NCBI GenBank assembly: GCA_029264225.1
Contig: JARICB010000366.1
Span: 1 to 10,788 of the forward strand
Direction: 5' to 3'
From: Nocardioides sp.
GTDB lineage: Bacteria > Actinomycetota > Actinomycetes > Propionibacteriales > Nocardioidaceae
Length of the DNA stretch: 10,788 bases
The notes under the pieces are model-generated. The model was given only the letters and a program-made list of their open reading frames with translations. It was not told the origin of the DNA and did no database searches. Below, in pieces: positions 1-10,772 of the stretch; position 1 is the stretch's first letter, and every line of letters begins with the position of its first letter. The position numbers and the translations under genes were made by a program.

Positions 1-1592
1 GCGCCCACGGACTGCGGCTCGTGATCGAGGTGAAGAACGGCTTCGTCCCCGAGGCCATCCTGGAGCAGCTCTACCGCCAGACCCCGCTCGAGGACTCGTT
101 CGGCATCAACGCCGTGGCCCTCGTCGACGGCCAGCCCCGCACCCTGGGCCTGAAGGAGATGCTCGAGGTCTTCCTCAAGCACCGCTTCGAGGTCGTACGC
201 CGCCGCTCGCTGTTCCGTCGAGAGAAGGCCGCCGCCCGGCTGCACCTGGTCGCCGGGCTGCTCATCGCCATCCTCGACATCGATGAAGTGATCCAGGTCA
301 TCCGCGGCTCCGACAACGCCGTGGTGGCCAAGGAGCGACTGATCGATATCTTCGAGCTGAGCGACCTGCAGGCCGACTACATCCTCGACATGCCGCTTCG
401 CCGGCTGACGAAGTTCTCCAAGCTCGAACTCGAAAAGGAGAAGGACGAGCTGGAGCGCATCATCGAGGAGCTCGACGCGATCCTGGGTGACGACAAGTTG
501 CTGCGCCAGGTCGTCTCCGACGAACTTGCTGAGGTCGCCAAGACCTACGGCACTCCGCGACGGACTGTGTTGCTCGCCTCGGCCGGCACCACCGTCGCGG
601 CGGCGGCCACTGCCATCGAGGTGGCCGACGACCCGTGCTTCGCCTATCTCTCCTCGACCGGGCTGGTCGCCAGGTCGTCGAGCGCCACCCCGCCCGGCCA
701 CGGCGAGTCGCGGGCCAACCACGACGTGATCACCTCAGCCGTGCGCACGACTGCACGCAGCGAGGTCGGCGTGCTCACCTCGGCGGGCCGGCTGGTGTGG
801 TTGGCCGTGCTCGACATGCCCGAACTGCCCGACTCGGCCAACGACCCCAACCTGCAGGGCGGGTTACCGCTGAGCGAGGTGCTGTCGCTGGCGGCCGGAG
901 AGCGGCCACTGGCGCTGACCTCGCTGGTCAGTGAGGGTCCCGGCATCGTGCTCGGCACCCGCGACGGCATCGTCAAACGGGTCAACCCCGAGGTGCTCGG
1001 CAAGGATGAGTGGGATGTCATCACGCTCAAGGACGGCGACGAGGTCATGGGCGCCGCCGAGCTGCTCACGGGCAACGAGACGTTGTGCTTCATCAGCACC
1101 GATGCCCAACTGCTCCATTTCGGCGCTGACGCGGTGCGCCCGCAGGGCCGCTCCGGCGGTGGCATCGCCGGGATCCGGCTCAGTTCCGGTGAGCGGGTGG
1201 CGTGGTTCGGCGTCCTCGCGGGACCCGACGCCGTCGTAGTGACTGCCTCGGGGGCCTCGACGGCCCTGCCGGGCACCGAGTCCGGCGCGGTGAAGGTGAC
1301 GCCGTTCAGCGAATACCCCGGCAAGGGTCGCGCCACCGGCGGCGTGCGCTGCCACCGTTTCCTCAAGGGTGAGGACACCCTCCTCACGGCCTGGGCTGGT
1401 CCCCCACCTGCCCTCGCAGCGGCCGCCAGCGGTGCCCCGATCGACCTCCCCGCGGCCAGCGGACGGCGCGACGGCTCGGGGATCCCGGCCCCGCAGGCCA
1501 TCGCGGCGGTGGCCGGACCAGTCGCCGTACGCCTTGCTGAAGATCGTGCTCAAGAACCGACTGAAGACCTGACCCAAGATGTGCAAAGGTGA
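1..1592 (+). CDS. parC: DNA topoisomerase IV subunit A (ParC), 5'-truncated by the window edge
   Basis: This is the C-terminal two-thirds of a type IIA topoisomerase A subunit, which cuts and rejoins DNA and, with ParE, decatenates daughter chromosomes. The frame is open from base 3, so the GTG at 21 is not the real start. The catalytic tyrosine and winged-helix domain lie upstream of the window. Visible in order: the end of the breakage-reunion core (GFVPEAILEQLYRQTPL, about 39-89), the coiled-coil arm (RLTKFSKLELEKEKDELE, about 402-456), then the C-terminal beta-propeller. The propeller carries a degenerate GyrA-box (QGRSGGG at 1143-1163) rather than the canonical QRRGGKG, which fits ParC better than GyrA. 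A low-complexity Ala/Pro tail ends the protein. ParC rather than GyrA is also supported by parE 3.5 kb downstream and a principal sigma factor close by. Its TGA stop overlaps a possible GTG start of the lipoprotein gene, suggesting co-transcription. Confidence 0.93.
   Translation, partial: AHGLRLVIEVKNGFVPEAILEQLYRQTPLEDSFGINAVALVDGQPRTLGLKEMLEVFLKHRFEVVRRRSLFRREKAAARLHLVAGLLIAILDIDEVIQVIRGSDNAVVAKERLIDIFELSDLQADYILDMPLRRLTKFSKLELEKEKDELERIIEELDAILGDDKLLRQVVSDELAEVAKTYGTPRRTVLLASAGTTVAAAATAIEVADDPCFAYLSSTGLVARSSSATPPGHGESRANHDVITSAVRTTARSEVGVLTSAGRLVWLAVLDMPELPDSANDPNLQGGLPLSEVLSLAAGERPLALTSLVSEGPGIVLGTRDGIVKRVNPEVLGKDEWDVITLKDGDEVMGAAELLTGNETLCFISTDAQLLHFGADAVRPQGRSGGGIAGIRLSSGERVAWFGVLAGPDAVVVTASGASTALPGTESGAVKVTPFSEYPGKGRATGGVRCHRFLKGEDTLLTAWAGPPPALAAAASGAPIDLPAASGRRDGSGIPAPQAIAAVAGPVAVRLAEDRAQEPTEDLTQDVQR
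1585..1592 (+). promoter_or_regulatory. Ribosome binding site deciding the lipoprotein start
   Basis: AAAGGTGA lies 5 bases before ATG 1598 and overlaps the parC stop codon (TGA 1590-1592). This favours ATG 1598 over GTG 1589 and suggests that translation of the lipoprotein may be coupled to termination on parC. Confidence 0.6.
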
Positions 1593-1597
1593 CCCCC

Positions 1598-2296
1598 ATG
1601 ATCGTGCGTACCGTTGGTCTCGTCCTGTGTGCGAGCCTCGCCCTTGGTGCTTGCAGCGGAGGCGCCGACCGGCCCCTCAGCAAGGACGCCTCGCCCGAAG
1701 AGGTGCTGAGCCTGGCGGCCACGATGCTCAACGACACCAGCGGCGTGAAGCTCACGCTCGCCACGACCAACCTGCCCGCCGGTGTCTCGGGCATCACCAA
1801 GGCAGACGGCATCGCGACCAACGCGCCCGCCTTCGAGGGCACGATCACGGTCCTCTTCTCCGGTCAGAGCGTGCAGGTTCCCGTCGTCGCCATCGACAGC
1901 ACTGTCTATGCGCAGTTGCCGTTCGCCCCCGGATGGCAGGACATCGACCCGGGTGAGTACGGCGCCCCCGACCCGGCTGCGCTGATCAGCGCCGAGACCG
2001 GCTTCCCCTCCCTGCTCGGGGTCACCACCGACCTCGAGGAGGGTGAGTCCGTGCGCGGCGGAGCCGACAACGCCGAGGTGCTCACCACCTACACCGGCAC
2101 CGTGCCCGGCGCGGCGATGAAGAAGACGATCCCGAGTTCCTCGGGCAAGAGCTTCGACGCGGAGTACCAGGTCGCCGACAACGGTGAGCTTCGTCAGGCT
2201 TCGCTCACCGGCGCCTTCTACCCGGACAGCACGGAGATGACTTACACGGTCGACTTCGCTGCCTACGGCACGAGCAAGGACATCGTCGCGCCGTGA
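1598..2296 (+). CDS. lprG: LprG-like lipoprotein (LppX_LprAFG family)
   Basis: This is a secreted lipoprotein of the mycobacterial LppX/LprA/LprF/LprG family, whose beta-barrel half-shell binds acylated lipids. In mycobacteria LprG works with the exporter Rv1410c/P55 to carry triacylglycerides and lipoglycans from the inner membrane towards the envelope. The signal peptide is short (MIVRTVGLVLCASLALGAC) with a lipobox ending L-G-A-C, so Cys19 should be the lipidated residue. The mature part shows family features: a TGF/TGL-like motif (AETGFPSLLG), a GWQDIDPGEYG loop and alternating beta strands. I chose ATG 1598 because AAAGGTGA (1585-1592) sits 5 bases upstream. An in-frame GTG at 1589 would overlap the parC stop but has a poorer ribosome site. 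The product has 232 residues, close to the roughly 236 of LprG. The gene ends inside the start of the MFS gene (GTGA overlap). The family call is from recognised motifs; lipid cargo is inferred. Confidence 0.85.
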   Translation: MIVRTVGLVLCASLALGACSGGADRPLSKDASPEEVLSLAATMLNDTSGVKLTLATTNLPAGVSGITKADGIATNAPAFEGTITVLFSGQSVQVPVVAIDSTVYAQLPFAPGWQDIDPGEYGAPDPAALISAETGFPSLLGVTTDLEEGESVRGGADNAEVLTTYTGTVPGAAMKKTIPSSSGKSFDAEYQVADNGELRQASLTGAFYPDSTEMTYTVDFAAYGTSKDIVAP

Positions 2297-4185
2297 GCGC
2301 GCCTTCCGGGTCCGCACCGACCCGGGCGCTGTTGAGTCTGGCGGCAGTAGCCGTCGCCTTCGCCGCTGCCGACACCTACGTCGTCGTCCTGGCGTTGCCC
2401 GACATGATGGGCAGCGTCGGGGTGCCGATCGACCAGTTGCAACGGGCCGCCCCGATCATCTCCGGCTTCCTGCTCGGCTACGTCGCGATGTTGCCGTTGA
2501 TCGGCCGGATTGCCGACCTCCGCGGCCGAGTGCCCGTCCTGGTCTTCTCGCTGCTGCTGTTCGCCTTCGGCTCACTCGTCACGGCCCTTGCCTACGACAT
2601 GCCCTCGATGGTGGTCGGCCGGTTCCTGCAGGGGGTCGGCGGTGGTGGTCTGGTGCCGGCCACGCTGGCACTGGTCGCGGACCTCTACCCCAAGGAACGA
2701 CGCGGTATCCCGCTGGGGATCGTGTCAGCCGTGCAGGAGATCGGCTCGGTCCTCGGACCGCTGTTCGGGGCCCTCGTGCTGGCCGTCGCCGACTGGCGGG
2801 CGATCTTCGCGATCAACCTGGCCGTCGGGCTGGTCCTGGCCGCCGTCCTCCACTGCGTCACCCGGTCGTCGGGTCGGCGGTCGCGTCGTGGCTGGCGTCG
2901 TGGCTGGCGTCGTGGCTTCACCATGTTAAGTAGGGAAGCCGTCACTTCGCACACCGTGGACGGTGTGACAAGTGAGGAGTTCCCTACTCAGCATGGTGAA
3001 GCAACAGCACCGGGCGCCCCCTCAGCAGTACGTCGCATGCCACCCGATTTCGTCGGGGCACTGCTCCTCACCGTCACCCTCGTGGCCGGAGCCCTGGTAT
3101 TCGTCCGACCCAGCCAACTCCTGCGCGACCTGACCTGGGGCCAGTTGTTCATCCCGTTCACTGGGTCGGGCCGTTGGCTGACGCCCATCGGCGCGATCGC
3201 CATCGTGGCGGCGGTGCTGTTCTGCGTCCGCTGTCTGACGGCCCGCCGCCCCCTGCTGGACCTGCGTCGTTGGGGCGCCAGCATCCTGGAGGCCGACCTG
3301 GTAGGAGCGCTGCTGCTGGCCGCTGCCTTGGCTGGAGTGATTCTCGCCTTCGCCACCGCCGACCCCAAGGTGCAGGTGTTCTCCGAGCAGGGCCTCTGGT
3401 TCCTGCTCGGCTCGGTCATCGCGACGTTCCTGCTGGTCTGGCACCTGCGCACCGCAAGGGCACCGTTGCTCCCTCGCGGTGCACTGCGACGTACGCCGGC
3501 CTGGGGAGCCCTGGTCGTCAGCTTCTTCATCGGAGCCGCCCTGATCGCGGCCCTGATCGACATCCCGCTCTTCGCCCGCACCACCGTCTACCCGGACTCG
3601 CAACTGGCGGCCGCGCTGGTGCTGGTGCGGTTCCTGGTGGCCCTGCCCATCGGCGCCGTGATCGGCGGATACCTGATCCGGCGCTTCTCCCCCGGCGTCG
3701 TCACTGCCACCGGCATGCTGCTGGCCGCCGCTGGCTTCGTGCTGATGACGCGCTGGGGACTCACCACGATCGAGGAACCGATCGCCAACCTCGCACTGCT
3801 GGTCGGCGGCTTGGGCTTCGGCCTCGCGCTGGCGCCGGTCAACGCGGCCCTGCTGGCCTACACCGACGACGACGTCCACGGCGTGGCCAGCGCGTTCGTC
3901 GTGGTGGCCCGCATGGTCGGCATGCTGGTCGGCATCTCTGCACTGACCACGATCGGGTTGCGCCGTTACTACGCCGAGCAGGGCGTGATCCCACCCGTGC
4001 GGGAGGTCTGCAACGGCAAGAGCAAGTGCGCGGAGTTCTCCGATCTGCTTCGGGTCGCGGGAATCGCCCAGGAGCACACGGTCTTCTGGGGGGCGGCGGG
4101 CTGTGCCCTCATTGCCGCCATCGCTGCGCTGGCGCTTTTTCGTGAGGCGAAGCCCACACCATTTCCCGCGGACCGGCGTCGCTGA
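2293..4185 (+). CDS. MFS exporter, LprG partner (P55/Rv1410c-like), with an enlarged central linker
   Basis: This proton-coupled inner-membrane exporter resembles mycobacterial P55 (Rv1410c), which extracts triacylglycerides and hands them to LprG. Motif A (GRIADLRGR), motif B (GRFLQGVGGGG) and motif C (GSVLGPLFGALV) are present. Asp27 in TM1 (AAADTYVVV), Glu149 in TM5 (AVQEIGS) and Arg540 (VVVARMVGM) line up with residues I recall as functionally important in Rv1410 (D22, E147, R417). The GTG start lies in the GTGA overlap with the lipoprotein stop, so the two are translationally coupled. The protein has 630 residues against about 518 in Rv1410. The excess lies between TM6 (ends near 188) and the canonical linker pair (about 333-393). 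It comprises an Arg-rich repeat (198-209), residues encoded by a palindrome (208-237) and an additional two-helix unit (252-328) resembling the linker. I count 16 hydrophobic helices instead of 14. Two cysteines (573, 579) lie in the probable extracytoplasmic loop before the last helix. Confidence 0.88.
   Translation: MSAPSGSAPTRALLSLAAVAVAFAAADTYVVVLALPDMMGSVGVPIDQLQRAAPIISGFLLGYVAMLPLIGRIADLRGRVPVLVFSLLLFAFGSLVTALAYDMPSMVVGRFLQGVGGGGLVPATLALVADLYPKERRGIPLGIVSAVQEIGSVLGPLFGALVLAVADWRAIFAINLAVGLVLAAVLHCVTRSSGRRSRRGWRRGWRRGFTMLSREAVTSHTVDGVTSEEFPTQHGEATAPGAPSAVRRMPPDFVGALLLTVTLVAGALVFVRPSQLLRDLTWGQLFIPFTGSGRWLTPIGAIAIVAAVLFCVRCLTARRPLLDLRRWGASILEADLVGALLLAAALAGVILAFATADPKVQVFSEQGLWFLLGSVIATFLLVWHLRTARAPLLPRGALRRTPAWGALVVSFFIGAALIAALIDIPLFARTTVYPDSQLAAALVLVRFLVALPIGAVIGGYLIRRFSPGVVTATGMLLAAAGFVLMTRWGLTTIEEPIANLALLVGGLGFGLALAPVNAALLAYTDDDVHGVASAFVVVARMVGMLVGISALTTIGLRRYYAEQGVIPPVREVCNGKSKCAEFSDLLRVAGIAQEHTVFWGAAGCALIAAIAALALFREAKPTPFPADRRR
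2884..2919 (+). repeat. 12-base tandem repeat, three copies, coding for Arg-Arg-Gly-Trp/Phe
   Basis: The unit CGTCGTGGCTGG occurs exactly at 2884-2895 and 2896-2907, then as a 10/12 copy at 2908-2919. It is in frame and encodes RRGW-RRGW-RRGF on the cytoplasmic side just after TM6 of the exporter. The third copy runs into the left arm of the 88-base palindrome that starts at 2915. Confidence 0.9.
2915..3002. repeat. 88-base palindromic element inside the exporter gene, possibly a mobile miniature repeat
   Basis: Two 43-base arms (2915-2957 and 2960-3002) flank a 2-base centre (GG, 2958-2959). By my base-by-base check 36 of 43 positions pair as Watson-Crick and one more as a G-U wobble. The outer 11 bp (GCTTCACCATG / CATGGTGAAGC), an inner 9-bp block (AGTAGGGAA / TTCCCTACT) and the 8-bp core (CACACCGT / ACGGTGTG) are perfect. 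G+C is about 55 percent, well below the flanks. It is read through in frame as residues 208-237 and includes a rare TTA leucine codon (2926-2928). It lacks a U-tract, so it is not a normal terminator. The compositional contrast and strict symmetry suggest an inserted miniature palindromic element, analogous to Rickettsia palindromic elements that also sit in frame inside genes. No second copy is seen in this window. Confidence 0.8.
3046..3475 (+). repeat. Protein-level duplication: two tandem linker-helix modules in the exporter
   Basis: Residues 252-322 and 335-393 of the exporter share their beginnings (DFVGALLL / DLVGALLL) and ends (TARRPLL / TARAPLL), each holding two hydrophobic helices. 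The second copy matches the single central linker pair of Rv1410-type proteins as I remember them (DLVGGLLL...). The first is therefore the extra copy. The DNA of the two copies has diverged, so the duplication is not recent. Confidence 0.6.

Positions 4186-9125: not shown

Positions 9126-10772
<1,647 letters not shown>

What the first reader, a model, noticed from the sequence alone, without database searches (positions are those of the whole stretch)
2915..3002. An 88-base near-perfect palindrome sits in frame inside the lipid exporter gene
Two 43-base arms pair at 37 of 43 positions (one wobble) around a GG centre. The DNA is about 55 percent G+C in a richer background and contains a rare TTA codon, yet the reading frame passes through it and transmembrane sequence resumes after it. 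It falls in the cytoplasmic loop after TM6, where extra residues are tolerated. This looks like a miniature mobile palindrome that has become coding sequence, as Rickettsia palindromic elements do. In the mRNA it should fold into a long hairpin that could attract RNase III or slow ribosomes between the two halves of the transporter.
Basis: partly seen in the sequence, partly recalled or inferred. Interest (0 to 1): 0.75.

Follow-up and report, generated by a model that had tools for sequence, protein, structure and literature searches.

The report
Repeated DNA palindrome inside a transporter
A 94-letter palindrome scattered through the genomes of Nocardioides and relatives, almost always between genes, has here landed inside a lipid-exporter gene and adds about 30 amino acids to the protein; in other genomes two such palindromes bracket a gene for a probable DNA-cutting protein that may be what spreads them.

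Summary
The palindrome is real; its full extent is 94 bp, 2912-3005. It belongs to a multi-copy family: 20 places in this genome and many related genomes. Of 110 copies examined, 105 lie between two genes, 4 are undetermined, and only the window copy is inside a gene. Its closest sister differs at 2 of 94 bases in unrelated flanks. Of 54 exporter loci scanned, one other (G006) has an in-frame copy in the same loop, different in sequence and frame. No target duplication and no Y1/RAYT transposase in genus carriers were found. Its model joins an AbiEi-like half to a Vsr/homing-endonuclease-like domain: a candidate mobiliser, untested across genomes and in this one. Tandem duplications across copy ends suggest template switching.

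The parts
2912..3005 (.). 94-bp palindromic element, full unit (left arm 2912-2958, right arm 2959-3005)
   Evidence: 15 full-length copies in the genome line up over 94 columns without net length change; conservation stops at these ends
2914..3003 (+). 30 codons lying wholly inside the element
   Evidence: frame read; codon-adaptation index 0.159 against 0.495 for the whole gene
2883..2917 (+). 12-bp tandem repeat, 2.9 copies, overlapping the left end of the element
   Evidence: end-spanning duplications occur at 14 of 218 element boundaries against 2 of 1256 control boundaries
2293..4185 (+). host gene: MFS exporter like Rv1410/P55, interrupted in the linker after TM6
   Evidence: Pfam MFS_1; best solved structure 8pnl, putative triacylglyceride transporter
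1589..2296 (+). LprG-like lipoprotein gene directly upstream
   Evidence: Pfam LppX_LprAFG, E 3.1e-31

Best explanation
The palindrome is one non-coding copy of an old family of 94-bp interspersed palindromes of Nocardioides and relatives. Shown: many copies, one fixed length, arms that covary, a habit of lying past gene ends, near-identical copies in unrelated flanks, no such element in nearly all exporter relatives, and, in ten other genomes, two elements bracketing one gene whose product is modelled as an AbiEi-like DNA-binding half joined to a Vsr/homing-endonuclease-like domain. Inferred: the gene with its two elements is the self-supporting form, and its protein cuts at or near element ends so that break repair copies elements to new places, much as RAYT genes bracketed by REPs are thought to serve REPs. 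One copy close to that on contig C122 entered the TM6-TM7 linker of an LprG/P55-type lipid exporter. The linker tolerates length change, and with a small compensating length change (94 is not a multiple of 3) the gene stayed open. As a DNA hairpin the element also makes replication switch template, which keeps its arms matched and makes the tandem duplications at copy ends. The confidence given is for the insertion of a family copy; for the role of the bracketed gene it is about 0.5.
Against: No transposition and no nuclease activity was observed. Some pairs were fetched because their spacing had been noticed. AbiEi-type genes are numerous (1908 relatives at 1e-10 among 8000 scored) and how many lie outside elements is unknown. 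There is no target duplication. The linker is too variable to read the exact insertion point. Gene conversion could also make copies alike. Copies were found by palindromic ends or pairing models, which inflates pairing statistics, and R2 also scores an unrelated 96-bp palindrome (up to 56 bits). At rplY-pth, G089 and G019 share an element with the same flanks, so some copies are inherited.
Confidence: 0.85

Rival explanations
1. The palindrome arose inside the exporter and is kept for RNA structure or for the peptide; it is not a mobile repeat.
For: It folds very strongly and the frame is kept.
Against: 20 places in the genome, 52 of 54 exporter loci without it, codon index 0.159 in the insert.
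Confidence: 0.03
2. The family consists of 3'-end hairpins (bidirectional terminators or mRNA 3' protectors) spread by selection for that role; the window copy is a misplaced one, and the bracketed gene is merely a frequent neighbour.
For: 100 of 105 copies with two neighbours are convergent or tandem; 82 of 100 lie within 60 bp of a stop; in tandem pairs the upstream stop is nearer than the downstream start in 40 of 50.
Against: Avoidance of promoters gives the same pattern for a neutral insertion. The G-T excess over A-C in the transcribed sense is weak (132 to 111, P 0.20). 135 of 196 genus genomes gave no match with R1.
Confidence: 0.25
3. The AbiEi/Vsr-like gene is cargo or a defence gene captured between elements, and an unknown enzyme moves the elements.
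For: PADLOC models call its N-terminal half AbiEi; no Pfam model covers its C-terminal half.
Against: The same gene family is in all 10 genomes, with like spacing (start side 110-135, stop side 4-54 bp in seven); no element pair of this spacing in the held loci lacked it.
Confidence: 0.3
4. A REP-like element moved by a RAYT (Y1) transposase.
For: Palindrome, 3'-end habit, no target duplication.
Against: PF01797 in 1 of 196 genus genomes, and that one (G164) is not among the 61 carriers.
Confidence: 0.04
5. Assembly artefact: the assembly joined two loci at the repeat.
For: The genome is in 451 contigs and some copies lie at contig ends.
Against: Both halves match the same exporter in order and frame: residues 9-624 of the window protein match the G022 relative in one stretch.
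Confidence: 0.03

Closest known systems
REP elements with RAYT genes (REPtrons)
   Same: A gene bracketed by two palindromic repeats whose solitary copies are spread between genes (RAYT description: passages of PMC3733652).
   Different: 94 bp instead of 20-40; the bracketed protein is AbiEi/Vsr-like, not a Y1 transposase, and Y1 genes are missing from the 61 genus carriers.
Rickettsia palindromic elements (RPE)
   Same: About 100-150 bp palindromic repeats that can sit in frame inside genes (passages of PMC3767692 and PMC10969869).
   Different: Other host lineage; fixed 94 bp; 1 of 110 copies in a gene; 43 of 110 without any open frame, whereas each RPE is described as encoding a conserved peptide ORF.
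Homing endonucleases of the I-Bth0305I/Vsr fold
   Different: Fused to an AbiEi-like N-terminal half and bracketed by palindromes; cutting not tested.
MITEs such as Correia and ERIC elements
   Same: Small, non-coding, inverted repeats, dispersed.
   Different: No target duplication found; longer forms carry an AbiEi/Vsr-like gene rather than a recognised transposase.

Membership tests
Rickettsia palindromic element | palindromic repeat in many copies | tested here: met
Rickettsia palindromic element | copies in frame inside genes | tested here: met
   window and G006 exporter, but rare: 1 of 110
Rickettsia palindromic element | each copy encodes a conserved peptide ORF | tested here: not met
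   43 of 110 copies have no open frame; mean 1.26 open frames against 1.80 (0.51-2.95) with permuted columns
Rickettsia palindromic element | sequence homology to RPE families | not tested
   no RPE sequence was fetched
REP/RAYT system | gene bracketed by two elements | tested here: met
   10 of 10 genomes where the AbiEi/Vsr-like gene was seen
REP/RAYT system | that gene, or any in the carrier, is a Y1 transposase (PF01797) | tested here: not met
   Pfam finds only AbiEi_4 in 7 of 7 bracketed proteins; PF01797 in 1 of 196 genus genomes, not a carrier
REP/RAYT system | 20-40 bp unit tagged GTAG at one end | tested here: not met
   94 bp, ends mostly GNNG/CNNC
MITE | target site duplication | tested here: not met
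   no consistent direct repeat at the ends of 110 copies
MITE | autonomous relative with the same ends | tested here: inconclusive
   two elements around an AbiEi/Vsr-like gene in 10 genomes; that this form is autonomous is inferred
Vsr/homing-endonuclease fold (bracketed protein) | fold of the C-terminal domain | tested here: met
Vsr/homing-endonuclease fold (bracketed protein) | DNA cutting | not testable with these tools
   invariant E204, D237, E248, D250 and K254 lie in the domain; their role is my guess
Rfam family | match above the family's gathering score | tested here: not met
   best match MIR4387, 40.5 bits against a cut-off of 84

The most novel reading that the evidence does not exclude
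A new kind of mobile element: a 94-bp DNA hairpin whose full form is a gene for an AbiEi/Vsr-type nuclease between two hairpins, spreading solitary hairpins by cut-and-repair copying instead of by a transposase, and kept symmetric by template switching. The linker of the LprG/P55 lipid exporter is a recurrent landing site where at least two different palindromic repeat families became protein.
Probability: 0.45. Interest if true: 0.88.

Novelty: new variant of a known kind. Interest (0 to 1): 0.74.

Why it matters
Palindromic repeats that become protein are best known from Rickettsia, and for many such repeats no mobilising enzyme is known. Here a family in free-living high-G+C bacteria, with hundreds of sequenced relatives, comes with a concrete candidate enzyme of a type not recognised as a transposase, so movement, arm correction and the birth of protein sequence from repeats become directly testable. 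A shared landing site in a transporter linker gives paired natural examples.

Tried and rejected
That was wrong: one cluster (AbiEi-type, four genomes) had been overlooked, and follow it. The probability of the novel case was kept although its statement now names the gene, and the interest scores were raised, for that reason; the odds of the 3'-end and REP rivals were lowered slightly and a cargo rival added. The draft also gave 47 of 49 exporter loci where 54 had been scanned, and gave 179 of 294 without saying that R2 also scores another palindrome.

TRIED WITHOUT RESULT: plain DNA search of 39 genomes found copies in one besides the own; covariance models reached more. Phage and plasmid collections gave no match. 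In viral contigs the pattern hit 7 places, all with spacing 65 or 67, none with the family's 66, taken as chance. In G010 the end pattern also gave two unpaired sites, which show no palindrome (C1:43910; C5:136541); the other unpaired-looking ends belong to copies with a diverged partner or to arrays as far as they were looked at. NCBIfam gave no family for 3 of 3 bracketed proteins and the solved-structure sequence search nothing significant.

REJECTED READINGS: single-copy coding palindrome; RAYT-driven REP; assembly chimera. ORFs spanning other copies (such as L104 and L166) were judged start-codon over-extensions, since the recognised domain begins downstream. For L208 and L210 searches used a wrong copy position, corrected.

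DROPPED ROWS: L007 (short flank) and L212 (95 long) are not among the 110 copies; incomplete copies C425, C142, C209, C340 and C33 were left out of pairing counts; named-collection copies entered only with exact TTCACCATG ends, spacing 66 and at least 25 of 42 paired. A2 holds 38 rows chosen by me. L256 was dropped. Loop length was measured for 28 relatives; the rest failed the text pattern. One search missed the L212 pair for its length.

PAPERS: passages only of PMC12306157, PMC3733652, PMC10576003, PMC3767692, PMC10969869, PMC5526307 and PMC2267715; PMC8794818 as a listing with the start of the abstract. That the family is not in print rests in the held open-access library.

Full report
WHAT IS THERE. 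The palindrome reported at 2915-3002 is real: 36 Watson-Crick pairs and one wobble in 43, while the next best site of that geometry in the window has 25. It folds at -67.4 kcal/mol against -33.0 +/- 3.7 for shuffles. Comparison with other copies extends it to 94 bp, 2912-3005. A 12-bp tandem repeat, 2883-2917, overlaps its left end.

THE HOST GENE. The gene 2293-4185 is an MFS exporter whose closest solved relative is 8pnl, the MHAS2168 structure of the Rv1410 study (PMC10576003, passages). An LprG-like lipoprotein gene lies directly upstream. The element falls after the sequence that matches TM6. Of the relatives whose linker could be measured, 28 have 20-45 residues (median 25.5); the window has 71 and G006 41. 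The inserted codons look foreign: codon index 0.159 against 0.495.

A FAMILY OF COPIES. The own genome holds the element at 20 places: 15 full length, all 94 bp, three cut by contig ends, one stopping half-way and one with an internal deletion. One search adds an end on C158 whose flank resembles that of C431 and may be the same locus. A scan of named genomes finds copies with the right spacing and pairing in Nocardioides sp. SR21 (contig lengths equal those of G010) and in actinomycete MAGs, one of them labelled Propionibacteriaceae; poorly paired or differently spaced hits elsewhere were set aside. That the window's genus is Nocardioides and its family Nocardioidaceae follows from SR21 lying in the same genus. 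Model R1 finds matches in 61 of 196 genus genomes. Model R2, from 38 diverse copies, finds them in 179 of 294 family genomes and 19 of 26 genera at E up to 0.001; because R2 also gives up to 56 bits to a different, 96-bp palindrome, only the hits at 1e-13 or better, about 90 genomes in 7 genera by hand count, are safe. Across the phylum R2 matches 2 of 396 genomes, the own one and one of the same family. These searches use strict filters and score few candidates per genome, so copy numbers and absences are rough. Of 18 loci inspected, 17 show the family pattern; L256 was displayed at a wrong position.

STRUCTURE IS KEPT WHILE SEQUENCE CHANGES. In the 38-row alignment 41 of 45 pairs change on both sides, 298 such cells against 101.5 +/- 8.2 in shuffles; part of this reflects how copies were found. 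In the transcribed sense of tandem-gene copies G-T cells (132) do not clearly exceed A-C cells (111) (P 0.20), which fits upkeep at the DNA level. Template switching is known to maintain hairpins (PMC8794818, listing); applying it here is my inference.

WHERE COPIES SIT. Of 100 copies with a gene end beside them, 82 are within 60 bp of a stop.

MOVEMENT. The window copy and the copy on C122 agree at 92 of 94 positions while their 40-base flanks agree at 12 and 14; the C122 copy lies between two tandem genes. Of 54 exporter loci scanned, counting the window and five more distant relatives, a 94-bp element lies in the gene in two: the window and G006 (L044:1450-1543); other matches in these loci (L030, L034, L036, L294, L298, L304), most of them weak, lie outside the gene. 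The G006 copy is read in another frame and matches the window copy at 48-49 of 94 positions, so I take it as independent, though an ancient shared insertion lost elsewhere is not excluded. No direct repeat marks the ends of 110 copies. PF01797 occurs in 1 of 196 genus genomes, not a carrier. No viral, phage or plasmid copy was found.

TANDEM ARRAYS AT THE ENDS. In SR21, arrays with periods of 35, 55, 59 and 66 bp adjoin copies, each unit joining an element tip to host flank. Over all copies a duplication spanning the boundary occurs at 14 of 218 boundaries against 2 of 1256 controls; the window's 12-bp repeat is one of the 14.

A SECOND REPEAT IN THE SAME LINKER. Ten of 49 exporter linkers carry TGGTYGAG or TCGAGACC motifs of another palindromic repeat, whose pattern matches 19 places in 6 of 8 genomes with none for the reversed control, including the exporters of G128, G053 and G012. 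Shared descent may explain part of the ten.

AGAINST THE SIMPLE STORY. At the rplY-pth spacer G089 and G019 share an element with the same flanks and 77 of 94 identical positions, so copies can be long-lived; G000 and G151 also have one there, and other genomes a different palindrome. The compensating length change needed for the open frame has not been located.

VERDICT. A family of interspersed palindromes, new to me and to the papers searched, with two in-frame captures by one exporter linker and a candidate nuclease gene bracketed by elements. It works like Rickettsia palindromic elements and like REPtrons but fails membership tests of both.

Noticed in passing
L323-L329, L258, L188, L212: A 311-313 residue AbiEi/Vsr-like gene bracketed by two 94-bp elements in ten genomes.
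   Followed up: partly
L259-L288, rplY-pth spacer: This spacer carries 94-bp elements in some species and a different, 96-bp nested palindrome in others.
   Followed up: partly
L030, L289, L290 exporter linkers: Tandem peptide repeats in the exporter linker, some made of pieces of a TGGTYGAG...TCGAGACC palindromic repeat.
   Followed up: partly
L093, L102, L134, L140, L148: A different repeated palindrome with TTCACCATGAAG ends in one Lentisphaeria MAG.
   Followed up: no
window 10335-10498: Short tandem repeats in the alanine- and lysine-rich N-terminal part of a sigma-factor-like gene on the minus strand.
   Followed up: no
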